Below, piece after piece: positions 26,009 through 37,958 of a stretch of DNA of 64,000 bases. The translations under genes were made by a program, and so were the position numbers. Source of the DNA: Paenibacillus sp. NAIST15-1 (GTDB lineage Bacteria; Bacillota; Bacilli; Paenibacillales; Paenibacillaceae); the NCBI RefSeq assembly GCF_001894745.1, contig NZ_BBYF01000002.1, positions 62,001 to 126,000 on the forward strand. The letters run 5' to 3'. Below the pieces are notes generated by a model, which made no database searches, was not told where the DNA came from, and worked only from the letters and a program-made list of their open reading frames with translations. The stretch's first letter is position 1; each line of letters starts with the position of its first letter.

Positions 26009-26341
26009 ATGATACTTACCGTCTCTTTTGGAAGACAAGGCCGTGAGTGGTTCGATATTGATGTAGCGGATGATTGTACAGTAGTTCAGTTGAAGGCAAT
26101 ACTTGGACTGAAGCTATTCGGAGAACCACCGAAGAATCATATGCAATATATTTTGGAAGTCAAGCAGCCAGAAGGATTATGGAGTACTGTTCCTGAGCAG
26201 CAGCGTTTGCTGGAGGCAGGTGTCCGTGAAGGGGCATACATTCGCGTACAGCGAGCGTTCTCCACGACTACAGATTCAGCACCATCGTTTGGTCGCCGAG
26301 CATTGTTCCAACTCGATGAGGCTGATGAACATACTGAGTAG
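26009..26341 (+). CDS. yukD: YukD/EsaB-like ubiquitin-fold protein of type VII secretion
   Basis: This 110-residue protein begins with a ubiquitin-like beta-grasp pattern (ILTVSFGRQGREWFDIDVAD, TVVQLKAILGLKLFGEPP, LLEAGVREGAYIRVQ), as in YukD of Bacillus and EsaB of Staphylococcus. These are small cytosolic accessory or regulatory parts of the type VII machine. The C-terminal 25 residues are polar and extra compared with YukD. It is the first gene of a one-strand cluster and lies 36 bases before the EssC gene, which supports the assignment despite weak sequence conservation in this family. Confidence 0.82.
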   Translation: MILTVSFGRQGREWFDIDVADDCTVVQLKAILGLKLFGEPPKNHMQYILEVKQPEGLWSTVPEQQRLLEAGVREGAYIRVQRAFSTTTDSAPSFGRRALFQLDEADEHTE

Positions 26342-26377
26342 TCGTGACAAGAGGAACGAGACGAGGAGTTGTTCAAT

Positions 26378-29300
26378 GTGAACGTGATGTATCAGAGATC
26401 GCCTCGCATTAAGCCGGAATTACCAGAGGAGAAGCTTGAGATATTACGGCCTCCTGCTGAACCGTCGCGTCCGACGTTCTCTATCGTTACACTGATTATT
26501 CCGATTGTGATGACCTTGGTCAGTATCGGATTCTACATATATATGTCCATGTCAGGGAAGATGGGCAATAGTAACTATATGATGTTTCAAATGATTACCA
26601 TCTCGATGATGCTTATGTCCTATACGCTTCCATTTTTCTTGTATTTGAGCAACAAAAGACAGTACGTGCGCAAGCAGGCGGAACGAAGTCAGATGTATCT
26701 GGCTCAATTGGAGAAGCATCGCCTGGAGATTATCGAGAAGCAACATGAGCAGCGAGCAGCGATGTATGCGATTCATGGTGATCCAGATGTGTGCCATCAA
26801 ATTGTGAAAAATCGCAACAGCAGCCTGTGGGAACGCGGGCCTTTTGATGTTGATTTTATGGATGTTCGCATTGGCACCGGAGAAGTGCCTTTTTATATGC
26901 CAATCATTACTCCGCGAACCGATGGCTACGAGAAGGATCCACTTATCGAGGCGGCTCATAAGCTCGAACAGGATTCTCGGACAGTAGATGAGGTTCCAAT
27001 TACATTGCCGTTGTATGAGTCGAAGGTAGTCGGAATCGTTGGAGACAAAGCTTCCGTTATGGAAGCAGTACGGATTGTGATTGCTCAGCTGACGACAAGG
27101 CATTCGCCTGATGAGGTGAAGCTAGCTGCGCTCTACGATGAGCAGGAAGCAGAGAATTGGGGCTGGCTGCGATGGCTTCCGCATACATGGAATGATGATC
27201 GCACACAGCGTTATTTGGCTGATCGGCGTAGTACGGCACATCAATTGGCTGATCAATTGTATGGAATTCTAAATCGTCGCAAGAGTTTCCAGACGACCGG
27301 CGAGAAGAAGAAGCAGCTTCCCATTTATGTTGTTCTGCTGCAGGATAGCCAAATGATCGAGGAAGAGCCGCTATATCCTCTTCTATTAGAAGAAGCGAGC
27401 CGAGTGGACAGCTGTACCCTAGTGCTGTCTGATCGCAAGGAGCGGCTTCCGATGCAATGCCGCCTTATTGTAGAAGTCGGTGCAGATACTGCTGTATCTA
27501 CGCAAAAAACGGATCAGGAGGGGATCGTTCAGCATTCCTTCCAAATGGATCATTTATCTGCTGACAAGATCGATACGCTGGCAAGATATATGGCGCCGAT
27601 TCGCTTGAAGCGTTCTGCTGCTTCAGATCTTCCACCCGTTCTAACGTTGTTCGATATGTTCGGTGTAGAACAAGTTGAGCAATTGAAGTTGGTGGAACGC
27701 TGGAATCGAAATCGATATCCAGATACATTGCCAGTGCCCGTAGGTGTGCGTGCTGGTGGCAAGCTGGTGTCCTTGAATCTCCATGACAAGATTGAACGCA
27801 AGGGACATGGTCCACATGGACTTCTCGCAGGAACAACAGGCTCAGGCAAAAGTGAGGTTATTCAGTCGCTAATTGCTTCACTGGCAGCTGAATACCACCC
27901 TCATGATGTGGCCTTCATGCTGATCGACTACAAGGGCGGAGGAATGTCTAATACGTTCGAGAAACTTCCTCATGTCGTAGGAACCATTACGAATCTAGAC
28001 GAGAGCCTGATCGAACGTGCACAGGTATCGCTTCGTGCTGAGCTGATTCGCAGACAACACATTTTGAATGATGCGGGAAACATGCAGCATATTGACGAGT
28101 ATTACAAGTCGCCGCTTCGCTATCAGAATCCGCTGCCTCACTTGATCATCATCATTGATGAATTTGCTCAGCTTAAGAAGGAACAGCCAGAATTCATGGA
28201 TGAGTTGATCAGTATAGCAGCTATTGGACGTACATTAGGTGTTCACTTGCTGCTGGCGACTCAGAAGCCTGCCGGGGTAGTGGATGAGAAGATATGGAGC
28301 AATACACGATTCCGCATCTGCCTTCGTGTTCAGAGTGAAGGCGATAGTCGGGATATGCTCAAAATTCCGAATGCAGCTTGGATTACGCATCCGGGGCGCG
28401 GGTATTTTCAGGTGGGCAGTGACGAAGTGTTCGAGGAGATGCAATTCGCATGGAGCGGTGCACCTTATCTGGTAAAGCGTCAGGAAGGTCAGCCGCTGCG
28501 AATTGAAGTGAGCGAGGTTCGCCTGAACGGGAAGATGGAGGCTTTGCTGCCTAGTGATACACTATTGTCGGCCTATGATGAGCAAGATCAGCTGAAGCAG
28601 CTTCAAGTATTCATTGATGCTGTTGCCGAGGCGGCATGTTGTGAGGAAATTAATCGATTGCAAGGGCCATGGCTCGCCCCGCTGCCACAAGAGCTAGGTC
28701 GCAGTGAATTATTCAAGCGTACACGGACGTTGTCAGGTGTTCCCGGTGATTTTAAGGGAATACAACCAATTGTAGGCTTGCTGGATGACGTCATGAACCA
28801 ACGGCAGGAGCCGCTTGGCATCGAAATGGATCATGAACATTGGGCAGTATACGGAATGCCGGGAACGGGAAAGACAACATTTGTACAGACACTTCTCATG
28901 TCTCTCGCTGAGCAGTATGAACCTGATGTCTGGCACGGCTATGTTGTGGATATGGGGCGTATGCTGAAGGATTATGCTGACTTGCCTCATGTGGGCGCGG
29001 TAATTGCAGGTGAGGATGAAGATAGACTCAAGCGGCTGTTCCGCTATCTTCTTGCGAAGGTGAAGGAACGAACAGAGATGTTGTCCGAAGCCGGCGTCAA
29101 GACGATTGCTTCTTATCGGCAGGTAACACAGCTATCGGTGCCGAATATTGTTGTTATCATTGACGGGTATTTGAATTTCCGAACTTCCTATCCGGATGAG
29201 AATGAATGTTTGGAATATTTGCTTCGAGAAGGCGGCAGCTTGGCCATTTCATTCGTGATTACAGCCAATCGCGTAACCGATATTTTTGACAAATTCCGTA

Positions 29301-30409
29301 GCAATATATCGAATGCGATTTCGTATGAATTAGCTGATCCAAGCGACTATTACTTTGCTGTGGGCAGACCGGCTAGAACGCCGGCGCGGCTGCAGGCAGG
29401 TCGCGGACTCATTAAGCATAACGGGGTACCGATCGAATTCCAGACTGCTTATCCTGCGGATGGGAACAATGATGTAGAACGTGTTCTTCAGTTGCGTTCA
29501 CAGATTCGATTGATGCACAATTCCTGGCAAGGGGCTGCAGCCCCACTCATTCGCAGCTTGCCTGAGCGTGTGCGTCTTAGTGAACTGCTGAAGCTGCACG
29601 ACGATTCATACGAGGAAAGCGAGATCATAGAAGCGGAGCAGCTGCAATGCTCGGAACGGTTGCAACCCGTGCCTGTTGGCGTGCGCACAGATGATTTGGA
29701 GCCATATCTGGTCAATTTGAAGGAAGGTCCTCACTTCGTCGTCGCAAGTCCTATGGAGAGCGGCAAGACCTCATTCCTTACGAGCTGGATGCTGTCTTTG
29801 GCTTATCATATGTCTCCAGAACGTTTGCATATCTATGCGATTGATGTTCGATATGGGGACAATGGCGTTGCTTCGCTAAGAGACTTGCCTCATGTAAGGG
29901 AGATTGTAACAGAGGAAGAGCGAATTCCTGGATTCATTCAGCAAGTATATGATCAGGTCTCGTCCCGGAGTAAGGATGGAGGGGATCCAATCCTACTGCT
30001 GGTTATGGATGATGCAGATATGCTGTGCAAGCAGCTCACAGATTACACGGTCAAAGATCAACTGTCTGCGATCGTACGCCAAGGTCGGGATAAAGGGGTA
30101 CATCTCGTATTGGCAGGGGTTCCGTCTGATTTTCCAACCTTCGGGGTGGACTGGTTTAACGATGTCAAAGCATCGCAAGCTGGATTTTTATTTGGGACGA
30201 TTGATGCGAATGATCTGTCCTTCTTCCGAATCCCGATCTCAGAGTCGCAGTCTTCTGGTCCTAGTGGGTCGAAGGTGCTTCCTCCTGGTCAAGGATATTT
30301 TGTTAGACGTAAATTTACAAAAATAAAGACAGCAATACCCTACGATGAAATATGGACTCCGGCCGCATGGACAACACTTATACATAAACGTTGGAAAGTG
30401 CGGGTCTGA
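26378..30409 (+). CDS. essC: type VII secretion FtsK/SpoIIIE-type ATPase (EssC/YukBA-like)
   Basis: This 1343-residue motor protein drives export of WXG100 substrates. Two membrane helices lie at about residues 33-80, followed by a coiled segment and three tandem FtsK-type ATPase domains. Domain 1 has Walker A GTTGSGKS (485-492) and Walker B LIIIIDEFAQL; domain 2 has GMPGTGKT (826-833) and VVIIDG; domain 3 has the weaker SPMESGKT (1124-1131) and LLLVMDDADML. The paired FHA domains at the N-terminus of Bacillus and Staphylococcus EssC are absent; the protein begins directly with a short Pro-rich leader. I chose GTG 26378, nine bases after GAGGAG. Confidence 0.95.
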   Translation: MNVMYQRSPRIKPELPEEKLEILRPPAEPSRPTFSIVTLIIPIVMTLVSIGFYIYMSMSGKMGNSNYMMFQMITISMMLMSYTLPFFLYLSNKRQYVRKQAERSQMYLAQLEKHRLEIIEKQHEQRAAMYAIHGDPDVCHQIVKNRNSSLWERGPFDVDFMDVRIGTGEVPFYMPIITPRTDGYEKDPLIEAAHKLEQDSRTVDEVPITLPLYESKVVGIVGDKASVMEAVRIVIAQLTTRHSPDEVKLAALYDEQEAENWGWLRWLPHTWNDDRTQRYLADRRSTAHQLADQLYGILNRRKSFQTTGEKKKQLPIYVVLLQDSQMIEEEPLYPLLLEEASRVDSCTLVLSDRKERLPMQCRLIVEVGADTAVSTQKTDQEGIVQHSFQMDHLSADKIDTLARYMAPIRLKRSAASDLPPVLTLFDMFGVEQVEQLKLVERWNRNRYPDTLPVPVGVRAGGKLVSLNLHDKIERKGHGPHGLLAGTTGSGKSEVIQSLIASLAAEYHPHDVAFMLIDYKGGGMSNTFEKLPHVVGTITNLDESLIERAQVSLRAELIRRQHILNDAGNMQHIDEYYKSPLRYQNPLPHLIIIIDEFAQLKKEQPEFMDELISIAAIGRTLGVHLLLATQKPAGVVDEKIWSNTRFRICLRVQSEGDSRDMLKIPNAAWITHPGRGYFQVGSDEVFEEMQFAWSGAPYLVKRQEGQPLRIEVSEVRLNGKMEALLPSDTLLSAYDEQDQLKQLQVFIDAVAEAACCEEINRLQGPWLAPLPQELGRSELFKRTRTLSGVPGDFKGIQPIVGLLDDVMNQRQEPLGIEMDHEHWAVYGMPGTGKTTFVQTLLMSLAEQYEPDVWHGYVVDMGRMLKDYADLPHVGAVIAGEDEDRLKRLFRYLLAKVKERTEMLSEAGVKTIASYRQVTQLSVPNIVVIIDGYLNFRTSYPDENECLEYLLREGGSLAISFVITANRVTDIFDKFRSNISNAISYELADPSDYYFAVGRPARTPARLQAGRGLIKHNGVPIEFQTAYPADGNNDVERVLQLRSQIRLMHNSWQGAAAPLIRSLPERVRLSELLKLHDDSYEESEIIEAEQLQCSERLQPVPVGVRTDDLEPYLVNLKEGPHFVVASPMESGKTSFLTSWMLSLAYHMSPERLHIYAIDVRYGDNGVASLRDLPHVREIVTEEERIPGFIQQVYDQVSSRSKDGGDPILLLVMDDADMLCKQLTDYTVKDQLSAIVRQGRDKGVHLVLAGVPSDFPTFGVDWFNDVKASQAGFLFGTIDANDLSFFRIPISESQSSGPSGSKVLPPGQGYFVRRKFTKIKTAIPYDEIWTPAAWTTLIHKRWKVRV

Positions 30410-30427
30410 TGGGGGGTGGACACATTG

Positions 30428-31291
30428 GTGACGAGTAACGAACCATATCTACAAGCGCAAGATGGCAGAAGTGGTATTGAGCTTCACGTAAAAGAATTGT
30501 ATTTTCTTGCTGGAATCATTGGATCTGATCGCTTGCTTGGGATTGAGGATCCATTTCGGGGCTATCTAACTGAGGAAATTGCAGAAGAATGGAATAAGGT
30601 CAAAGCTGCGCTGCTGCGCAAGGGATACTTAACGGAAGAGCCTGGAGGCAGAGAGCTGGCTATGCCATCTCACGTCTATTCAACGGTAGCGGTAACGGGA
30701 TTGGCAAATCGCTCCTGCTGGGTTCGGATTTCAAATGCAGCAGATGAGGGGCCTAATCGCGAAGTATACGAAGGCTATTTTCATTTTACGAATGAATTAG
30801 TCATCGAACGAGCACAGAAGCGGCTCCAACCAGAAATTTGCTCCTTTCGAGAATATGACTCGACGAATGAGGCGTGTTCCGTCATTGTGAACCGCATGAA
30901 CTGGGCTGATCAGCAGGAAAGCGAGATAGCTGCTGTTATGTTGTCCAAGAGGCATTTCCATAAACTCTATGAGCATGCGGCTGAGCTTACCGTAGAGCAA
31001 ATGACTAGTCAGCTAATGACCTTCGATGGAGAGGAAGCGGGAGCAATGGCCCTGGCGCATTCGCTGAAGCATCGTACCGCAGAAGGGGAGCTCTTGTTTC
31101 TTGTGTGGAATGAGAAAAGCTGGGATGTGCAGGGAGCAGCTTTTCTCGTCGGAGGTTCCCGCAATTGGCTTATTCGGCAAAGCTCCAAAGGTGATGAGGA
31201 TTGGCTGACTGCCACATTAACAACAAAGGAACAACTTGAAGGCCTGTTAATCGAGTGGGAACGCCAGCATTCTATAGAAGAAGGAAGGTGA
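30428..31291 (+). CDS. type VII locus protein, possibly an EspG-like substrate chaperone
   Basis: I do not recognise this 287-residue soluble protein with certainty. There is no signal peptide or membrane helix. Its N-terminal layout resembles actinobacterial EspG chaperones: IELHVKELYFLAGIIGSDRL, then an amphipathic helix with EEIAEEWNKVKAALLRKGYL, a linker, and a long alternating beta region including CWVRISNAADE and YEGYFHFTNELVIER. The late LLFLVWNEKSWDVQGAAFLV also looks like a beta hairpin. It sits directly between essC and a WXG100-like gene, where EspG genes lie in ESX loci. GTG 30428 and TTG 30425 are both possible starts after GGGGGGTGG. Treat EspG as a hypothesis. Confidence 0.55.
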   Translation: MTSNEPYLQAQDGRSGIELHVKELYFLAGIIGSDRLLGIEDPFRGYLTEEIAEEWNKVKAALLRKGYLTEEPGGRELAMPSHVYSTVAVTGLANRSCWVRISNAADEGPNREVYEGYFHFTNELVIERAQKRLQPEICSFREYDSTNEACSVIVNRMNWADQQESEIAAVMLSKRHFHKLYEHAAELTVEQMTSQLMTFDGEEAGAMALAHSLKHRTAEGELLFLVWNEKSWDVQGAAFLVGGSRNWLIRQSSKGDEDWLTATLTTKEQLEGLLIEWERQHSIEEGR

Positions 31292-31295
31292 CATC

Positions 31296-32465
31296 GTGCG
31301 CATTATCGTAACGCCGGATGCGCTTCGTCAGGGGAGCCGTCAGTTGCAGGCAACAGCGGAGCAATTAAATGCGATTCAATCGTCATTGGAACGTTCTCTG
31401 CAGACGCTGGAGTGGGAGGTTTCTATTAAGGCTGCGATCGGAGAAAAATGGCAGCAAGCTTCTCGGTTATCGGCTCAAATACATACGCTTTTGTTTGATT
31501 TAAGCCAGCAGCTTCAGTCCAAGGCGGATCAGTTTCAATCAGCTGATCAGCAAGCGCACCCGATTCTAGGCCATGCCTATCAAATCGGTTCGGCGGCGTC
31601 ATTATATTCAACGATAGGGATTGGGGGGGCATCACTGATTATCCCTGCTCTAGGGACACAGGTAGGCGCCATATCGAACCCAAATGCGGTTGTTCGGGCG
31701 ATTGGCACACAAGAGGATAAAGGTTCAGGCGGTTGGAATTGGAAGCCAACGACTCCTGAAATGTATGGCTATGGCAAAGACGGATACCGCATGATCAATA
31801 TGGCGAAGAGCGGGTTCAATGTGAATGTTCGTGGAGACGGCTACGTGACAATCAGTGGTGCAAGATCGAAATTCGCACTGTCTGAGGGGATTCAAGGAAC
31901 GAGATATGCGGCATCGAATGCAGCGAATCATGCAAATGTGTGGAAATTCGTTGATCCAGTAGTTGCAGCAAAGGAATCGCTCTCTATCAAGGGATGGAGT
32001 GCCAAGCTTGGATATGCGGGGCTTGCATACGATACAGGTACCGCAGTCATGACGGATTACGAGAAGGGTGGCCCTAGTCGTGCAGCTGCCAGTACTGTTG
32101 TGAATGGATCAATCGGAGTAGGTACCATGGCAGCGAGTGCTGCCGTGGGAGCCTGGGTAGGTTCAGTCGTTCCTGTTGCCGGCACTATTGTAGGGGCAGG
32201 AGTAGGGTTAGCAACAGGAGCTGCTATCTCTATGGTTACGGAGGTAACCATTAATGGCAAGTCTATCAAGACCCATGCGGTTGATGCCGTTGACACTGTG
32301 GTGGATACCGTGACTGATACCGTTGCGAGCGGAACGAAAGTGGCAACTGATGCTGTTCAAGATGGCGTTAAAGCGGTGAAGAGCGGTGCAACGAAGGCTG
32401 CTGGCAAAGTCGTGAATAAGGTTTCAGATATGTTCGGTTCAGTAGGTAAACTACTGCCTAGTTGA
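31296..32465 (+). CDS. candidate type VII secreted protein: WXG100-like N-terminus plus glycine-zipper domain
   Basis: This 389-residue protein starts with about 85 residues of helix-turn-helix WXG100 character (LRQGSRQLQATAEQLNAIQS, turn near LEWEV, then LSAQIHTLLFDLSQQLQSKA). There is no signal peptide. The middle part has beta/Gly-rich sequence (NVNVRGDGYVTISGARSKFA). Residues about 265-315 form a hydrophobic glycine-zipper segment (GSVVPVAGTIVGAGVGLATG) able to insert into membranes. The tail is a set of Val/Asp/Thr/Lys amphipathic repeats. It is probably an exported substrate, perhaps a membrane-active effector; toxicity is not shown. It starts 5 bases after the preceding gene with GGAAGG before the GTG. 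Confidence 0.65.
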   Translation: MRIIVTPDALRQGSRQLQATAEQLNAIQSSLERSLQTLEWEVSIKAAIGEKWQQASRLSAQIHTLLFDLSQQLQSKADQFQSADQQAHPILGHAYQIGSAASLYSTIGIGGASLIIPALGTQVGAISNPNAVVRAIGTQEDKGSGGWNWKPTTPEMYGYGKDGYRMINMAKSGFNVNVRGDGYVTISGARSKFALSEGIQGTRYAASNAANHANVWKFVDPVVAAKESLSIKGWSAKLGYAGLAYDTGTAVMTDYEKGGPSRAAASTVVNGSIGVGTMAASAAVGAWVGSVVPVAGTIVGAGVGLATGAAISMVTEVTINGKSIKTHAVDAVDTVVDTVTDTVASGTKVATDAVQDGVKAVKSGATKAAGKVVNKVSDMFGSVGKLLPS

Positions 32466-32661
32466 AGCTATTAAAACGGGGCTAATAGACTAACCTAATT
32501 TATGACATAGGAACTATATTATGATATTTATTTATCGCTCTGTAGGATCAGAATACTGCTCATGTTATTTGTATATTGGTTAATATGATCAGCTCGTCGC
32601 ATCGCGTGTGCAGCTTCGATAAGAATTGTAGGATGCAAGAGTAGAAAGGGAAGGATGAATT

Positions 32662-32979
32662 ATGGGGAATCAGACTGAACAACAACATGTTGGGAATGGA
32701 GAGGATGCATTGCTTCCACTCGGCTCTATCGTACTGCTGCATGAAGGAAGCAAAAAATTAATGATATATGGCCGCAAGCAGCTGCAGATCACTACGAACC
32801 GTTTGTTCGACTATTTGGGAGTCATATATCCTGAAGGGTATATTGATGAGAACTACTCCTATTTGTTCAATCAGGAAGACATTGAAATGATTGTCCACGT
32901 TGGCTATACCGATGTGGAAGAAGAGCAGTTCCAACTCGTACTTCAGAGCGTTCCTCAGGCTCAGGAGTCCACATTTTAG
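32662..32979 (+). CDS. DUF4176 protein of the type VII locus
   Basis: This 105-residue cytosolic protein matches the DUF4176 pattern: LLPLGSIVLLHEGSKKLMIYGR, FDYLGVIYPEGYI, FNQEDIEMIVHVGYTDVEEEQF. DUF4176 proteins occur almost only in type VII/LXG operons of Bacillota, and some act as targeting factors or chaperones for LXG toxins. It lies 196 bases after the candidate substrate and 120 before EsxA, so it could serve either. AAGGGAAGG precedes the ATG. Confidence 0.85.
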   Translation: MGNQTEQQHVGNGEDALLPLGSIVLLHEGSKKLMIYGRKQLQITTNRLFDYLGVIYPEGYIDENYSYLFNQEDIEMIVHVGYTDVEEEQFQLVLQSVPQAQESTF

Positions 32980-33005
32980 AATTAGGACTGCAGACTCTTT
33001 TAAAT

Positions 33006-33034
33006 TTGTAATAGATTTCATGTACAATTATTAA
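33006..33034 (+). promoter_or_regulatory. possible internal promoter before the esxA gene
   Basis: TTGTAA at 33006-33011 and TATTAA at 33029-33034 have a 17-base spacer. With the hairpin after esxA, this would give separate high-level expression of the small substrate. Confidence 0.4.
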
Positions 33035-33098
33035 TAGAAATATTTGCATAATTTATTTGTCGTTCAAATGTCTATGTCTACCAAAAGGAGGAACAAAC

Positions 33099-33374
33099 AT
33101 GGCAGGTCGCATTTTAATTACACCGGAACAGGTTGATCAAGTGTCGAATCAATTCAAGCAGGGTGGAGATCAGAGTCAACAGATCGTAGCTACCCTGACA
33201 CAAGCTATTCAAGGAATGGAAGGTCAATGGGAAGGGATGACGAAACAGCGCTTCTTCCAAGAATTCCAAGAAGCAAGCAAGCAGATGCAATCCTTCGTTC
33301 AAACCTTGAACACAATTAGCGAAGAATTGAAGGCTATTGCGCAGAAGTTCCGCTCTGTGGATGAACAGCGCTAA
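33099..33374 (+). CDS. esxA: WXG100 family type VII secretion target (EsxA-like)
   Basis: This is a small secreted helical hairpin of 91 residues. The WXG motif is WEG in GMEGQWEGMTKQRFF, centrally placed, flanked by two helices (QVDQVSNQFKQGGDQSQQIV and MQSFVQTLNTISEELKAIAQ). The C-terminus KFRSVDEQR resembles the Y/F-xxx-D/E export signal with Phe in place of Tyr. Proteins of this type are exported as dimers by EssC and are needed for machine function. AAAGGAGG precedes ATG 33099. A hairpin with T-run follows, so it may be expressed more strongly than the downstream genes. Confidence 0.95.
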   Translation: MAGRILITPEQVDQVSNQFKQGGDQSQQIVATLTQAIQGMEGQWEGMTKQRFFQEFQEASKQMQSFVQTLNTISEELKAIAQKFRSVDEQR

Positions 33375-33404
33375 TCGTTCAATTCTTACTTGAATACGAA
33401 GAGG

Positions 33405-33434
33405 AAGCCGGGCGTAAGACACTCCCGGTTTTTC
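33405..33434 (+). terminator. hairpin/attenuator between esxA and the kinase-like gene
   Basis: AGCCGGG pairs with CCCGGTT around an 11-base loop and is followed by TTTTTC. It lies inside the gene cluster, so it probably lets some transcripts through. Confidence 0.65.
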
Positions 33435-33474
33435 TTACATCATACAGATGCATCATCTCGGGAGGATAGGAATT

Positions 33475-35511
33475 ATGTCATTTCAGCCACAATCAGGAGA
33501 TACGATCATTATTCAAGATATCGAATATCGGTTCGGCGAACATCCGGCAGCTCCTGGCCTCGTATATGCGCAGGCTGGCAGACAGGGTGTCATCTATCAG
33601 CTGCTTCCAACCCGAGGAGATGCTGTAGAGGCAAAGGCGCTCAAAGTGTTCCATCCGAAGTATCGTATCCCTGCGATGGTATATCAATCTGAGCTGCTCG
33701 ATACCTATAGTGAGCTTCCAGGACTAAGCGTGTGCAGTCGGAACGTATTGACCCCTGAGAAAAACGGAGGACTTATCCAGAAGAGCACGGATTTGCTCTA
33801 TGCAGTGGTAATGCCGTGGATACATGGCCCGACGTGGCTGGATATCGTTGCAGAACATAATCGGCTGACACGCCAAGACAGCCTGCAGATTGCCAAATCG
33901 CTCGCACGAGTATGCTCCGGTATGGAGCAGCGAGGTCTGGCACATTGCGATTTGTCTGCGCCGAATGTCATGCTTCCGTTTTTCTCGGAAGTTAAGCAGA
34001 GTTCGAAGGCATCATCGATTGAACTGGTAGATGTGGAGCAGCTCTATAGTCCTAAGATGGATCGACCGGATGTGCTGTTCAGTGGCTCTCCAGGATATGC
34101 TGCACATCGTGCGCTGCTGACAGGGATGTGGAGTGCATATGCAGATCGATTCGCAGGCAGCATTCTTCTTGCAGAGATGCTTGGTTGGTCATCTCAGCAG
34201 ATCGTGGATAAGGCATGGGGCGAGAGCTATTTCGACCAACGTGAAATGCAAACCTCCTGCGAGCGCTATGAGGGATTGAAGCATGTATTAACAGAACGAT
34301 ATGGCAGCAAAGTATCGGATCTGTTCTCACGCGCTTGGGAAAGCCAGGATTTGAGCAGTTGTCCGACCTTTGGTGAATGGTTGATTGTGCTTAATGGCGT
34401 AGACGAGGAAGAACAGATCGTTATGGACGTTAAGCAGCAGAATGCGCCAGAAGGAACGCAAGCGATTCATGAGCAGCGTTCAGAGGATAAAGCGATAGAT
34501 AAAGAGGCGGAAGGGTGCACAAAGAATTCTGCTGTACAACCCGATGCAGTATCCGCCCCCCTTATTCCTGCTCGGGCTGATGTTGATCCGGATGTGGTCA
34601 ATCGCCTGTTCCGGCAGGCAAGAGAACTAGAAGAGCAAAATCAACTGCAAAGTGCCTTGGAAGTGTACCGATCGGCTCATCATTTTGTTGAGAAGGAAAG
34701 TCCGATGCATATTGAGCTGGCTGCGGCGATTCAAGACTTGGAGCAGAAGCTTGCAAGGGAAGCAGATCAAATGCCACGGTCTAAGGTCAAGCTAGGGAAG
34801 CGAGCGATTGCGATCATTAGTGTAGCGTCAGCACTCCTATTGCTTGGCTGTGGAGCTTTTGTGATGAATCAGATGAACGAAGATGCGGTTAAGAAGGCTG
34901 CGGAAGAACAAGCGCTGCTTGACGCAAAGACTCAACAGTTGAAGGCGGAAGAGGAACGGAAGCAGGAAGAAGCAAAACGGCTTCGTGAGGAAGAACAGCG
35001 CAAGGAGGAAGCGCGCAAGCAAGAGGAACAGCAACGCAAGGAAGATGAGCAGAAGCGCATAGAGGAACAGCAGCGCATCAAGAAGCTGGAGGAACAGAAG
35101 AAGAAGGGTGCGGAGCGGAAACGCCTGCAGGCCCAGTATGATCAACAAGAGCAATATGAGAAGTATGTGGAGTGGAAGAAGAAGCGGGATGAACAGACAA
35201 GAATGGAACAGGCTCGCGAGCAGGAGCGCAAACGGCTGGAAGCGGCACAGGCCGCACAGGCTGCGGAGAAAGCTGCTCAATTAAAGAAGATTCGCAGTCG
35301 TGATGTGGTACTGCTGATTGCCTCTTACAATAAGGCGTATAATGCACTATCAAGAAATAATGTGAATAATGCTTCAAAGTATGCATTAGAGTTTACAGAA
35401 CGGTATGAAAAGGATCCAGACTACTTCAAAAATGTAGGCAAGGTGGGGACGAGGGCCGGACATATTTATAAGTTCTTGAATGATACGTCCTATATGCTGC
35501 CAGACATTTAG
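33475..35511 (+). CDS. membrane Ser/Thr-kinase-like protein of the type VII locus (EssB topology)
   Basis: This 678-residue protein has a cytosolic kinase-like domain (about 1-300), a helical-repeat linker (about 370-430), one membrane helix (443-466) and an external Glu/Lys/Arg/Gln-rich coiled coil (470-610) ending in a small helical domain. Kinase elements seen are the lysine in AKALKVFHP, the catalytic loop HCDLSAPN (157-164) and DVE (186-188) where DFG is usual. EssB/YukC of known machines has the same order but a pseudokinase and only about 450 residues. The retained catalytic-loop Asp and Asn suggest activity, though no glycine-rich loop is obvious. ATG 33475 follows GGGAGG. It probably replaces EssB and signals to the adjacent VWA and phosphatase proteins. 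Confidence 0.8.
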   Translation: MSFQPQSGDTIIIQDIEYRFGEHPAAPGLVYAQAGRQGVIYQLLPTRGDAVEAKALKVFHPKYRIPAMVYQSELLDTYSELPGLSVCSRNVLTPEKNGGLIQKSTDLLYAVVMPWIHGPTWLDIVAEHNRLTRQDSLQIAKSLARVCSGMEQRGLAHCDLSAPNVMLPFFSEVKQSSKASSIELVDVEQLYSPKMDRPDVLFSGSPGYAAHRALLTGMWSAYADRFAGSILLAEMLGWSSQQIVDKAWGESYFDQREMQTSCERYEGLKHVLTERYGSKVSDLFSRAWESQDLSSCPTFGEWLIVLNGVDEEEQIVMDVKQQNAPEGTQAIHEQRSEDKAIDKEAEGCTKNSAVQPDAVSAPLIPARADVDPDVVNRLFRQARELEEQNQLQSALEVYRSAHHFVEKESPMHIELAAAIQDLEQKLAREADQMPRSKVKLGKRAIAIISVASALLLLGCGAFVMNQMNEDAVKKAAEEQALLDAKTQQLKAEEERKQEEAKRLREEEQRKEEARKQEEQQRKEDEQKRIEEQQRIKKLEEQKKKGAERKRLQAQYDQQEQYEKYVEWKKKRDEQTRMEQAREQERKRLEAAQAAQAAEKAAQLKKIRSRDVVLLIASYNKAYNALSRNNVNNASKYALEFTERYEKDPDYFKNVGKVGTRAGHIYKFLNDTSYMLPDI

Positions 35512-35560
35512 CGCGGATCAGGCACGATTGAAATAACATGCTATGAGGTGAATTGGACGG

Positions 35561-36313
35561 ATGAACTACACGATACAGGCTTCACAGCGCACGCCTGCAC
35601 TTCTCATCTATTTAATTGATATCAGTGCTTCCATGAATATGACGATGGCCGGAAGACGGCGAATCGATGTAGTATATGACGCATTATCCCAAGCGATTCG
35701 ACAGATGGTATTCCGTTCTACGAAGGGAAATCGTCTGACACCGCGCTATCGCATTGCAATATTGGCCTACAGTGACGATGTCTATGATGTGCTGAATGGC
35801 ATCAAGGGAATTGACGAGATTGCAAGCATGGGGGCATTACCTGATTTGACGCCGGTTCGCTTCTCTGATGCAGCCAAGGCGTTCCTTCAGGCAGAGAGAC
35901 TGCTGGAGGCCGAGCTGCCTCATATGCAGGACTGTCCTGCTCCGCTTATTTGCCATATGACGGACGGAGTTGCTACCGGGGATGATCCAGCGCCAATTGC
36001 TAGGCGGATTATGCAAATGAGTGTGCCGGACGGCAATGTGCTTATCGAGAATATATTTATTACGGATCACATGTTGGATACACCAATTGAAGAACCCCGC
36101 AGGTGGAAGGGAATCGTGCAGGATACCGTTCTTACCGATGAACATGCACAGAAGCTGCGAAGCATGTCTTCGATCTTGCCGGAAAGCTATCGTGAGATGT
36201 TGGTGGAGGCGGATTATCACCTCTCATCAGGAGCCTACATGATGCTGCCCGGAAATTGTCCAGAGCTGGTCTCGATCGGATTCCAAATGTCTGCCGCTAC
36301 TCCTGTGCGTTAA
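35561..36313 (+). CDS. von Willebrand factor A domain protein of the type VII locus
   Basis: This 250-residue soluble VWA protein has the MIDAS metal motif DISASM (DxSxS) in LLIYLIDISASMN, followed by YRIAILAYSDDVYDVL and the acidic HMTDGVATGDD. The domain pattern resembles the stand-alone cytosolic VWA proteins found with tellurite-type (Ter) and kinase/phosphatase gene sets. It starts 49 bases after the kinase gene and ends 119 bases before the phosphatase gene. It is probably an adaptor that binds a partner in a metal-dependent way; the partner is unknown. The ribosome site is a modest GAGGTG upstream of ATG 35561. Confidence 0.88.
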   Translation: MNYTIQASQRTPALLIYLIDISASMNMTMAGRRRIDVVYDALSQAIRQMVFRSTKGNRLTPRYRIAILAYSDDVYDVLNGIKGIDEIASMGALPDLTPVRFSDAAKAFLQAERLLEAELPHMQDCPAPLICHMTDGVATGDDPAPIARRIMQMSVPDGNVLIENIFITDHMLDTPIEEPRRWKGIVQDTVLTDEHAQKLRSMSSILPESYREMLVEADYHLSSGAYMMLPGNCPELVSIGFQMSAATPVR

Positions 36314-36432
36314 TTGATTCCTAACGAAGGGATTTCACAATGAGGAGAGATTGCAGGAAGCTATTCAATCTCCGTATGCCTATTGTACAACGATACAGCT
36401 TGGATTACGTAAGAAAGGCAGGGTGAATCCGA

Positions 36433-37248
36433 TTGAGTCTGACATCCTTTCACTACCGTTGTTCCCAACAGGTGGATCAGCCGTTAATGACGATCGAGCA
36501 ATCCTCTTTTCGCTGTAGATTTGCTTACGCACGAGCGGGAGAGACGGCGCAATATAAGGATAACAATCAAGATTATTTGGCCTTTCGCATAGATGGTGGT
36601 TCGCTCAGCTTTGTATTATGCGATGGGGTTAGTTTGAGCTACCAAGGAGATTTTGCTGCGAGGTTTCTAGGTGCCCATCTATTGGACTGGATTGCTGTTC
36701 AGTCTGAATTGAATGCCGAGTCTTTGCATGCTTATCTGGATTCTCTACGTGATGCAGCAGCTGAGCAAATGTCTGGACTGCCGATTCCCTCGGGACTCCC
36801 TCCACTTGTGAAGGAAGTATTGGAAGACAAGAAACGAATCGGCAGCGAGGCGATGTTCACCTGCGGGCGAATCGATGGCACTGATGGAACGGATGAAGCA
36901 GAGCCGTATAGTCGAATATGGCTTGCATGGCATGGGGACGGGCGACGTCGGTTATGGCAGCATGGACAAGAAAGCTGCAATCTGTTCGAGACTTCCAGCT
37001 CAAGTGGAGAACGGTGGTCAGTCTATCGTGGTCTCATCGGCGGAAGAGCTCATACCTTGCACCACCATATTGAAGGCAATGCACCCTTTCGGCTGATGGT
37101 GTATACCGACGGGTTATCCGAATTGGACAGCCTGCCGTATCCGCCTGCAGACGAACTGCTTCGCCACAAGCTGGAGCATCGAAATGGAGAAATGCTGGAG
37201 GATGATGTGTCTCTGCTCGACATAAGCTGGTCATCTCGCGGAAAATAA
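36433..37248 (+). CDS. PP2C-like protein phosphatase of the type VII locus
   Basis: This 271-residue protein shows PP2C features: NNQDYLAFRID (first metal Asp), FVLCDGVSLSYQGDFAARFL (metal Asp-Gly), MVYTDGLSELD and the last DDVSLLDISW. The motif before DG is less typical than VADGMGG, so divergence is notable, but metal-binding aspartates appear kept. Next to a kinase-like and a VWA gene it probably dephosphorylates the same targets. The start TTG at 36433 has AGGGTG seven bases upstream; ATG 36487 is the alternative but has no ribosome site. It is the last gene of the cluster. Confidence 0.82.
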   Translation: MSLTSFHYRCSQQVDQPLMTIEQSSFRCRFAYARAGETAQYKDNNQDYLAFRIDGGSLSFVLCDGVSLSYQGDFAARFLGAHLLDWIAVQSELNAESLHAYLDSLRDAAAEQMSGLPIPSGLPPLVKEVLEDKKRIGSEAMFTCGRIDGTDGTDEAEPYSRIWLAWHGDGRRRLWQHGQESCNLFETSSSSGERWSVYRGLIGGRAHTLHHHIEGNAPFRLMVYTDGLSELDSLPYPPADELLRHKLEHRNGEMLEDDVSLLDISWSSRGK

Positions 37249-37418: not shown

Positions 37419-37958
37419 ATGAAGAGAAAACACGCAGATCGCTACGATTGGAAACGGATTTTGTCCAAGCAGTTCGCGCTAACTGAAGTAGATTCTCCCG
37501 AATTTACAGGCTACATCTCTCTGATTAAATTCAATGCGGTGCGGCAGCCGTTAACAGTGACAATGGACGGGAAGAGAATAAAGCTCGTAGATACAGGATA
37601 TTGCTGGATGCAATATTTCCCCCTGCATAAGCATTATTCCATTACGACTGTATTTGATGAACAGGGGGAGGTCATGCAGTGGTACGTGGATGTTTGTGAA
37701 CCGGTCGGAACGGATGATCGGGGCATCCCCTATTTCGACGACTTATACTTAGATGTTGTGCTGCTGCCATCGGGCCATATCTTCCTCTTGGATGAAGATG
37801 AGCTGGAAGAAGCTCTGGAGTGGGGACGCATTACCCATGATCAATACAGCACAGCTGTGAAAGAAGCTTCCCGACTCGTTCATGAAGTGAAGGAACACCC
37901 ATTAGTTAGACGAAGTAAAGAGGACTTTATAATGATGCAGCAATTGCTTGTGCCATGA
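37419..37958 (+). CDS. DUF402-domain protein (Ntdp-like nucleoside phosphatase)
   Basis: This 179-residue protein matches the DUF402 family: ITTVFDEQGEVMQWYVDVCE, YFDDLYLDVVLLPSGHIFLL and DEDELEEALEWGRITHDQY. Characterised members in Gram-positive bacteria hydrolyse nucleoside tri- and diphosphates or bind RNA. The Tyr/Trp/Asp-rich core is well kept here. It is transcribed alone between the type VII cluster and a terminator hairpin that begins at its stop codon. AGGAAGG precedes the ATG. Confidence 0.85.
   Translation: MKRKHADRYDWKRILSKQFALTEVDSPEFTGYISLIKFNAVRQPLTVTMDGKRIKLVDTGYCWMQYFPLHKHYSITTVFDEQGEVMQWYVDVCEPVGTDDRGIPYFDDLYLDVVLLPSGHIFLLDEDELEEALEWGRITHDQYSTAVKEASRLVHEVKEHPLVRRSKEDFIMMQQLLVP

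What the first reader, a model, noticed from the sequence alone, without database searches (positions are those of the whole stretch)
26009..37248. Type VII secretion locus with kinase, VWA and PP2C modules and no EssA/EsaA
Nine same-strand genes hold YukD, EssC, EsxA and DUF4176 homologues, but no EssA or EsaA-type membrane proteins. In their place are a membrane kinase-like protein, a VWA protein and a PP2C-like phosphatase. A kinase-phosphatase pair controls type VI secretion (PpkA/PppA) by phosphorylation; a similar system joined to type VII secretion would be new to my knowledge. The gene set is seen; a phospho-switch on secretion is inference.
Basis: partly seen in the sequence, partly recalled or inferred. 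Interest (0 to 1): 0.78.

Follow-up and report, generated by a model that had tools for sequence, protein, structure and literature searches.

The report
Kinase-equipped type VII secretion locus (T7SSc)
This stretch of a Paenibacillus-like genome encodes a protein-export machine of a subtype (T7SSc) already described in 2024, which carries a kinase, a VWA protein and a phosphatase instead of the usual membrane partners; related kinase-VWA pairs also sit beside such machines in another phylum, often with no membrane anchor, which favours a control role over a structural one.

Summary
The nine genes are really there, but this is not a new system. It is a T7SSc, defined by Garrett, Higginson and Palmer in 2024 (PMC11217815) for Paenibacillus among others, with kinase TscD, VWA protein TscE and phosphatase TscF. 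That paper also suggested phospho-control of some T7SS subtypes and drew the T6SS parallel.

In 197 Paenibacillaceae genomes, 50 of 52 TscD kinases lie within 20 kb of essC on the same strand, and 0 of 197 has YukC/EssB above the Pfam cut-off.

Three refinements go beyond the texts I saw. The constant pair is kinase plus VWA (51 of 52); no phosphatase was found near 9 of 52. TscE matches TerY, so the triad resembles TerY-P. In Chloroflexota 16 of 35 kinase loci have VWA and EssC, 14 of these 16 with a kinase frame of at most 380 residues, without room for a membrane segment. That weakens the idea that TscD merely replaces EssB. The phospho-switch itself remains untested.

The parts
26009..26341 (+). 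TscB, YukD/EsaB-like small beta-grasp protein, 110 aa
   Evidence: Pfam YukD E=0.024, 15.8 bits, below cut-off 27; orthologues next to EssC in L003, L004, L005, L006, L007, L008, L021
26369..30409 (+). TscC, EssC-type FtsK/SpoIIIE ATPase, 1346 aa, no FHA domain recognised in the first 500 residues
   Evidence: TIGR03928 1198.8 bits over cut-off 778.4; FtsK_SpoIIIE in 3 stretches; no FHA match in residues 1-500
30416..31291 (+). TscG, EspG-fold chaperone, 291 aa
   Evidence: AlphaFold model mean pLDDT 88.0; the 18 PDB matches at E<=0.001 are all EspG, best 4w4i E=2.6e-13, TM 0.60/0.64
31296..32465 (+). Candidate cargo: N-terminal WXG100 domain and C-terminal glycine-zipper-like hydrophobic stretch, 389 aa
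   Evidence: Pfam WXG100 29.5 bits (cut-off 27.3) and EspC 25.4 (cut-off 23.5); GxxxG at residues 285, 296, 300, 304; long relatives in L003/L090, L083-L089 and L106
32662..32979 (+). DUF4176 protein (family now called Ltc toxin chaperones), 105 aa
   Evidence: Pfam DUF4176 99.2 bits, cut-off 25; family role from a passage of PMC13355648; by single-sequence search found only in the loci that carry a long gene-4 relative
33057..33374 (+). TscA, EsxA-type WXG100 protein (likely start ATG 33099)
   Evidence: Pfam WXG100 66.0 bits; TIGR03930 75.9 bits, cut-off 44.85
33448..35511 (+). TscD, membrane Ser/Thr-kinase-like protein (likely start ATG 33475): kinase domain, TPR-like helices, one TM helix, long predicted helix, small helical end
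35561..36313 (+). TscE, TerY-type VWA protein, 250 aa
   Evidence: PADLOC TerY E=4.4e-24; VWA_2 24.6 bits, cut-off 27; 54-96% identity to 14 orthologues
36433..37248 (+). TscF, PP2C/PPM-type phosphatase-like protein, 271 aa
   Evidence: Pfam PP2C_2 21.6 bits, cut-off 24; the five aspartates tested are conserved in 37 of 37 Bacillota rows

Best explanation
This is a T7SSc secretion system. TscC (EssC ATPase), TscB, TscA and the chaperone TscG are the export core; the gene-4 WXG/glycine-zipper protein with its DUF4176 chaperone is the likely local cargo. TscD, TscE and TscF form a TerY-P-like control module. Proposed mechanism (inferred): TscD reads an envelope or cell-state signal and phosphorylates a partner. 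The VWA protein TscE, its constant companion, is the likeliest first target or reader and in turn gates or assembles the TscC machine. TscF, where present, resets the switch. Shown here: identity of the parts, genetic linkage, conserved catalytic residues, and that the membrane part of the kinase is variable or absent across relatives. Not shown: kinase or phosphatase activity, the phospho-target, or any effect on secretion.
For: All seven TscA-G components are present, as listed for T7SSc in PMC11217815. TscD-TscC linkage: 50 of 52 within 20 kb, same strand; median gap 2,126 bp over the 51 on one contig with EssC; TscD-TscE: 51 of 52. In 47 Bacillota kinase rows the VAIK Lys, the catalytic-loop Asn and the DFG Asp are kept in 47, the HRD Asp in 46; PP2C aspartates 37 of 37; VWA DxSxS 43 of 44, the other row being truncated. 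In the phylum of L011 (Chloroflexota) 16 of 35 kinase loci have both VWA and EssC within the fetched stretch; of 20 loci whose kinase frame is at most 380 aa, 14 have EssC and 18 the VWA. WXG100 and YukD of L066 and L073 pass Pfam. 28 of the 31 genomes with the kinase also hold an EssC-like match somewhere, against 73 of 400 overall. The ectodomain varies: long helix, WG repeats in Brevibacillus, nearly none in L103, L105, L110, L111, L017. TscE matches TerY.
Against: No activity or secretion data. No PP2C found near 9 of 52 Paenibacillaceae kinases nor in 18 of 35 Chloroflexota kinase loci, several of them on short contigs, so a reversible switch may not be general. No FHA phospho-reader recognised in the locus. 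10 of 35 Chloroflexota loci have the kinase family with neither VWA nor EssC, so the kinase domain is not exclusive to T7SS. 26 of 76 EssC hits in Paenibacillaceae have no such kinase within 20 kb and 45 of 73 Chloroflexota genomes with an EssC-like match have no kinase match, so the module belongs to some subtypes only. PADLOC links of TscD and TscF to TerY-P are weak and not their best matches. The co-occurrence p-value (2.3e-26) ignores shared ancestry, and the genome searches score a capped number of candidates per genome.
Confidence: 0.62

Rival explanations
1. TscD is mainly a structural replacement for EssB: a membrane scaffold with a kinase fold that holds TscC, its catalysis being incidental.
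For: Published topology parallel between TscD and EssB; EssB/YukC is a pseudokinase membrane hub (passages of PMC13037476). The genome has no YukC match, and 0 of 197 family genomes has one above cut-off.
Against: Catalytic residues kept in 46-47 of 47 rows, whereas the active site of EssB is not conserved (PMC11217815). 14 of 16 Chloroflexota loci with VWA and EssC have kinase frames of at most 380 aa, without room for a membrane segment. The outside part is replaced between clades. PMC13037476 reports that TscD of P. azoreducens, unlike TsdD, TseD and TsjD, does not show the bitopic arrangement of TraF.
Confidence: 0.2
2. The triad is a TerY-P-like stress or anti-phage module that travels with T7SS genes without controlling secretion.
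For: TerY match; TerY-P triads occur with WXG and FtsK-like genes in H. pylori and in CoCoNuT restriction loci, where defence or stress roles are proposed (passages of PMC4978471, and PMC11090510).
Against: Same-strand placement within 20 kb of EssC in 50 of 52 cases, usually inside the Tsc gene run; found in two phyla. None of the window proteins other than EssC has an over-cut-off helicase or restriction match.
Confidence: 0.12
3. TscD catalyses something other than Ser/Thr phosphorylation (for example AMPylation), since DFG is replaced by D-x-E.
For: D-x-E in 47 of 47 Bacillota and 23 of 28 Chloroflexota triad-group rows, D-x-D in the other 5.
Against: VAIK Lys, HRD Asp, Asn and DFG Asp are kept; a PP2C gene lies near 43 of 52, which suggests phosphoprotein substrates.
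Confidence: 0.06

Closest known systems
T7SSc (Garrett, Higginson, Palmer 2024, PMC11217815)
   Same: Same seven components TscA-TscG, EssC without FHA, no EssA/EssB/EsaA; Paenibacillus named as a carrier
   Different: This locus adds a WXG/glycine-zipper protein and a DUF4176 chaperone between tscG and tscA. The paper's main text does not mention TerY, Chloroflexota, DUF4176 or a glycine zipper; its supplementary data were not read
T7SSb (EssC/EssB/EssA/EsaA)
   Same: EssC, EsxA, YukD; DUF4176 chaperones
   Different: No EssB, EssA or above-cut-off EsaA in the genome; no FHA recognised on EssC
TerY-P triad (TerY VWA, PP2C, Ser/Thr kinase)
   Same: VWA protein matches TerY at 4.4e-24; the same three protein classes
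   Different: Kinase has a TM and ectodomain instead of a C-terminal zinc ribbon or OB fold; embedded in a secretion gene cluster
T6SS threonine phosphorylation pathway (PpkA/PppA/Fha; its details are recalled or from a passage of PMC11217815)
   Same: Membrane kinase plus PP2C linked to a secretion machine
   Different: No FHA protein recognised; different secretion machine
TelE of Streptococcus gallolyticus (PMC10434224) for gene 4
   Same: WXG-superfamily N-terminus and C-terminal glycine zipper, T7SS-linked
   Different: WXG100 rather than LXG N-terminus; no immunity gene recognised; toxicity not tested

Membership tests
T7SSc | EssC/EccC-type ATPase without N-terminal FHA | tested here: met
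   TIGR03928 1198.8 bits; no FHA Pfam match in residues 1-500
T7SSc | TscA, single WXG100 protein of EsxA type | tested here: met
   WXG100 66.0 bits, cut-off 27.3; gene 4 has a second, weaker WXG100 domain
T7SSc | TscB, YukD-like | tested here: inconclusive
   Pfam YukD only 15.8 bits, cut-off 27; accepted on position and orthologues
T7SSc | TscD kinase with TM, kinase active site conserved | tested here: met
T7SSc | TscE VWA and TscF PPM phosphatase | tested here: met
   both Pfam scores lie just below cut-off
T7SSc | TscG with EspG fold | tested here: met
T7SSc | EssC phylogenetically nearer to T7SSa EccC than to T7SSb EssC | not tested
   No EssC/EccC tree was built
T7SSb | EssB/YukC present | tested here: not met
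   0 matches in the genome; B. subtilis control rang
T7SSb | EssA present | tested here: not met
   0 matches in the genome; B. subtilis control rang
T7SSb | EsaA present | tested here: not met
   4 hits, none over the 122-bit cut-off and none on the window's contig; that they are YhgE/Pip-type relatives is recalled, not tested
EssB fold (TscD) | Fold match of TscD to EssB/YukC | tested here: inconclusive
   The rows shown were protein kinases; a family not listed is not excluded
TerY-P triad | TerY-type VWA protein | tested here: met
   PADLOC TerY 4.4e-24
TerY-P triad | PP2C of the TerY-P type | tested here: inconclusive
   PADLOC PP2C 1.6e-4, second to PDC-M21C 6.8e-5
TerY-P triad | Kinase fused to zinc ribbon or OB fold | tested here: not met
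   After the kinase domain the model has helices, a TM and a long helix; Pfam at E<=1 shows kinase matches only
T6SS-type phospho-pathway | FHA phospho-reader in the locus | tested here: not met
   No FHA match for the nine proteins at E<=1 (for EssC only 25 of 43 families were printed, so residues 1-500 were rescanned at E<=0.01, none); the rest of the genome was not searched for FHA

The most novel reading that the evidence does not exclude
A TerY-type VWA plus kinase pair is a licensing module for FHA-less type VII secretion shared by Bacillota and Chloroflexota. It may be older than the membrane forms of the kinase; the ectodomains (long helix, WG repeats, none) would be later, interchangeable sensors, and the VWA protein, not an FHA domain, would be the phospho-reader that opens the EssC channel.
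Probability: 0.3. Interest if true: 0.65.

Novelty: new member of a known kind. Interest (0 to 1): 0.4.

Why it matters
The system type is in print, but in the texts I saw no experiment addresses what its kinase, VWA and phosphatase do. The comparison makes that testable: the constant pair is kinase plus VWA, so TscE is the partner to assay first. The naturally short, apparently soluble kinases of Chloroflexota separate a regulatory from a structural role. The TerY link would join threads (T7SSc, TerY-P triads, CoCoNuT and H. pylori islands with WXG/FtsK genes) that are treated apart in the passages I read.

Tried and rejected
Rejected: a degenerate T7SSb (no EssB, EssA or above-cut-off EsaA). 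Rejected: chance assembly of unrelated genes. Not settled: EssB likeness of TscD by fold. Foldseek and VIA-align showed only protein kinases among the rows printed, which excludes nothing.

Led nowhere: Rfam found no family in the window at gathering score. PDB search with the TscE profile gave one match at E=0.86. The promoter/terminator scan was close to the shuffled expectation (21 against 17.2; 10 against 9.2). The PADLOC match of gene 4 to LeoB (2e-6) lies on the glycine-rich stretch and I treat it as composition. Anantharaman et al. 2012 and PMC12482557 are not held; their content is known here only through other papers' passages.

Literature basis: PMC11217815: abstract, passages, part 1 of 3 of the Results, substrate section and Discussion. 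PMC13037476, PMC11090510, PMC4978471, PMC1779556, PMC10434224, PMC9600955, PMC13355648, PMC3935865, PMC4010439: passages only. Statements that something was not found in print rest on searches of the held open library, whose listings were often cut to 15-30 papers.

Rows dropped before counts: one search used 52 of 54 TscE rows (two weak ones at about 1e-11 dropped) and 76 of 78 EssC rows (two partial sub-cut-off ones dropped). One search used 44 of 46 PP2C rows (second pieces of G169 and G150 dropped). For the Chloroflexota census two weak kinase hits (63 and 46 bits) were not fetched, and a 20-bit EssC piece at a contig edge in L071 was counted as absent. In one search duplicate loci (L001, L002, L026, L031-L050 except L046, L090, L098, L099) and short rows were left out. 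The whole-genome searches score a limited number of candidates per genome (for example 3 for EssC, 5, 2), so absences, such as EssC in G083, are not firm.
Full report
What is there. Nine same-strand ORFs occupy 26009-37248. By Pfam and NCBIfam they are a YukD-like protein, an EssC, an unnamed protein, a WXG100-headed protein, a DUF4176 protein, an EsxA, a kinase-like membrane protein, a VWA protein and a PP2C-like protein. The EssC call is secure (1198.8 bits, cut-off 778.4). YukD, kinase, VWA and PP2C are all below Pfam's cut-offs taken alone and rest on relatives. The DUF402 gene at 37419 has a relative downstream in P. alvei (L003) but none in the other loci, so I leave it out.

The unnamed protein. 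Gene 3 was folded from a 25-sequence alignment (pLDDT 88.0). All 18 PDB matches at E of 0.001 or better are mycobacterial EspG chaperones (best 2.6e-13). An EspG fold is what PMC11217815 reports for TscG of T7SSc.

Which system. PMC11217815 defines T7SSc by TscA (WXG100), TscB (YukD-like), TscC (EssC without FHA), TscD (membrane kinase, active site conserved), TscE (VWA), TscF (PPM phosphatase) and TscG (EspG fold), reports no further T7SSa or T7SSb components in carrier genomes, and names Paenibacillus. Every component is here, TscB with the weakest evidence. Genome-wide searches found no YukC, no EssA and only sub-cut-off EsaA-type hits elsewhere. The paper also raises phospho-regulation for some subtypes and compares with the T6SS. 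The finding is therefore a member of a published kind and its main idea is in print. A 2006 paper already listed an S/T kinase near YukD in low-GC Gram-positives (PMC1779556); I take that to mean what is now called EssB in T7SSb (my inference).

Co-conservation. I searched 197 Paenibacillaceae genomes for TscE (49 with a match, 47 after dropping two weak ones), TscD kinase (47), EssC (70), YukC (1, none over cut-off) and TscF (44). Of 52 TscD hits, 51 have TscE within 20 kb and 50 have EssC within 20 kb, all of these on the same strand. The exceptions are G083, where kinase and VWA lie on different contigs and no EssC was found, and G159, with EssC 26 kb away. TscF is within 20 kb of 43 of 52. 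Seven of the nine without it are the short-kinase forms (frames of 464-497 aa); Pfam found no PP2C among ten proteins of one such operon (L111). Conversely 26 of 76 EssC hits have no TscD within 20 kb, so T7SS loci without this module exist in the family. No correction for shared ancestry was made.

A second phylum. The search for related loci brought in two Anaerolineae loci (L011, L018). A search of 400 genomes of L011's phylum (Chloroflexota by the label printed) found the kinase in 31. Of 35 loci examined, 24 have the VWA, 17 PP2C, 17 EssC and 16 VWA with EssC. Of the eight with VWA but no EssC, six lie on contigs under 15 kb, L074 on a 19 kb contig and L056 in a 4.1 Mb contig. Ten have neither. 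In 20 loci the kinase frame is at most 380 aa, leaving no room for a membrane part; 18 of these have the VWA and 14 EssC. L066 carries VWA, PP2C, kinase, WXG100, YukD and EssC in a row; WXG100 and YukD pass Pfam cut-offs and no FHA was found on the EssC N-terminus. On the kinase tree the 20 short forms make one 100/100 group apart from the Bacillota and membrane forms; the root is unknown. Several lie on contigs of 4-9 Mb, so contamination is not the general explanation. EssC-like matches are commoner than the kinase: 73 of 400 genomes at 1e-60, only 7 over the family cut-off. 28 of the 31 kinase genomes have one and 45 of the 73 have no kinase match. ESX-type systems or WXG100 proteins had been noted in Chloroflexi before (PMC4010439, PMC3935865). 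I found no report of the kinase-VWA link there in the held library (searches listed under Tried and rejected). Whether these are T7SSc or a sister subtype needs an EssC tree.

TerY link. TscE matches PADLOC's TerY at 4.4e-24. TscF and TscD match the PP2C and STK_OB models weakly (1.6e-4 and 8.8e-4) and not as best hits. TerY-P triads with WXG/FtsK genes are described in an H. pylori island, and TerY-like VWA genes beside EssC-like ATPases in CoCoNuT loci. The main text of PMC11217815 does not mention TerY.

Cargo. Gene 4 has a WXG100 head and a tail with GxxxG repeats (residues 285-308), as the probably pore-forming T7SSb effector TelE has a C-terminal glycine zipper (PMC10434224). [quoted passage not shown] The pair occurs together in the window, L003/L090, L083-L089 and L106. 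Toxicity and immunity are untested. The only two WXG100 Pfam matches of the genome are in this locus; LXG proteins were not searched for.

Verdict. Observation confirmed; novelty claim not upheld. The best mechanism is a TerY-P-like control module on a T7SSc. Confidence in identity is about 0.95; in the regulatory reading about 0.6.

Noticed in passing
L066 7700-15736; L073 8639-15569; L011 1905-14497: Chloroflexota T7SS loci with kinase, WXG100 and EssC, with VWA and YukD in L066 and L073 and PP2C in L066; kinase short in L066 and L073, membrane-type and doubled in L011.
   Followed up: partly
G300:C7, G232:C5, G241:C112, G308:C1, G557:C230, G236:C80: Frames of 2,957-2,993 aa that each gave two EssC-like stretches: apparently giant fused EssC-type ATPases in Chloroflexota.
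   Followed up: no
L011 7178-8260: Protein after EssC whose C-terminus looks like a CHAP amidase (by eye, not tested), next to a TscD-type kinase.
   Followed up: no
L019 9989-12043: TscD-like protein of Brevibacillus migulae with the catalytic HRD aspartate changed to arginine and no other Tsc gene matched in the fetched stretch; perhaps a pseudokinase.
   Followed up: no
L003 13009-13807: TscF of P. alvei DSM 29 is split into two overlapping frames; sequencing error or real inactivation not distinguished.
   Followed up: no
L103, L105, L110, L111: A T7SSc-like clade with no PP2C recognised, a kinase ending just after its TM helix, and two WXG100-like genes after TscG.
   Followed up: partly
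L057-L063: A Chloroflexota clade of 697-788 aa membrane kinases related to TscD with no VWA, PP2C or EssC match in the 20 kb fetched around each.
   Followed up: no
L073 7399-8862: TIR-domain protein on the opposite strand next to a VWA-kinase-EssC locus.
   Followed up: no
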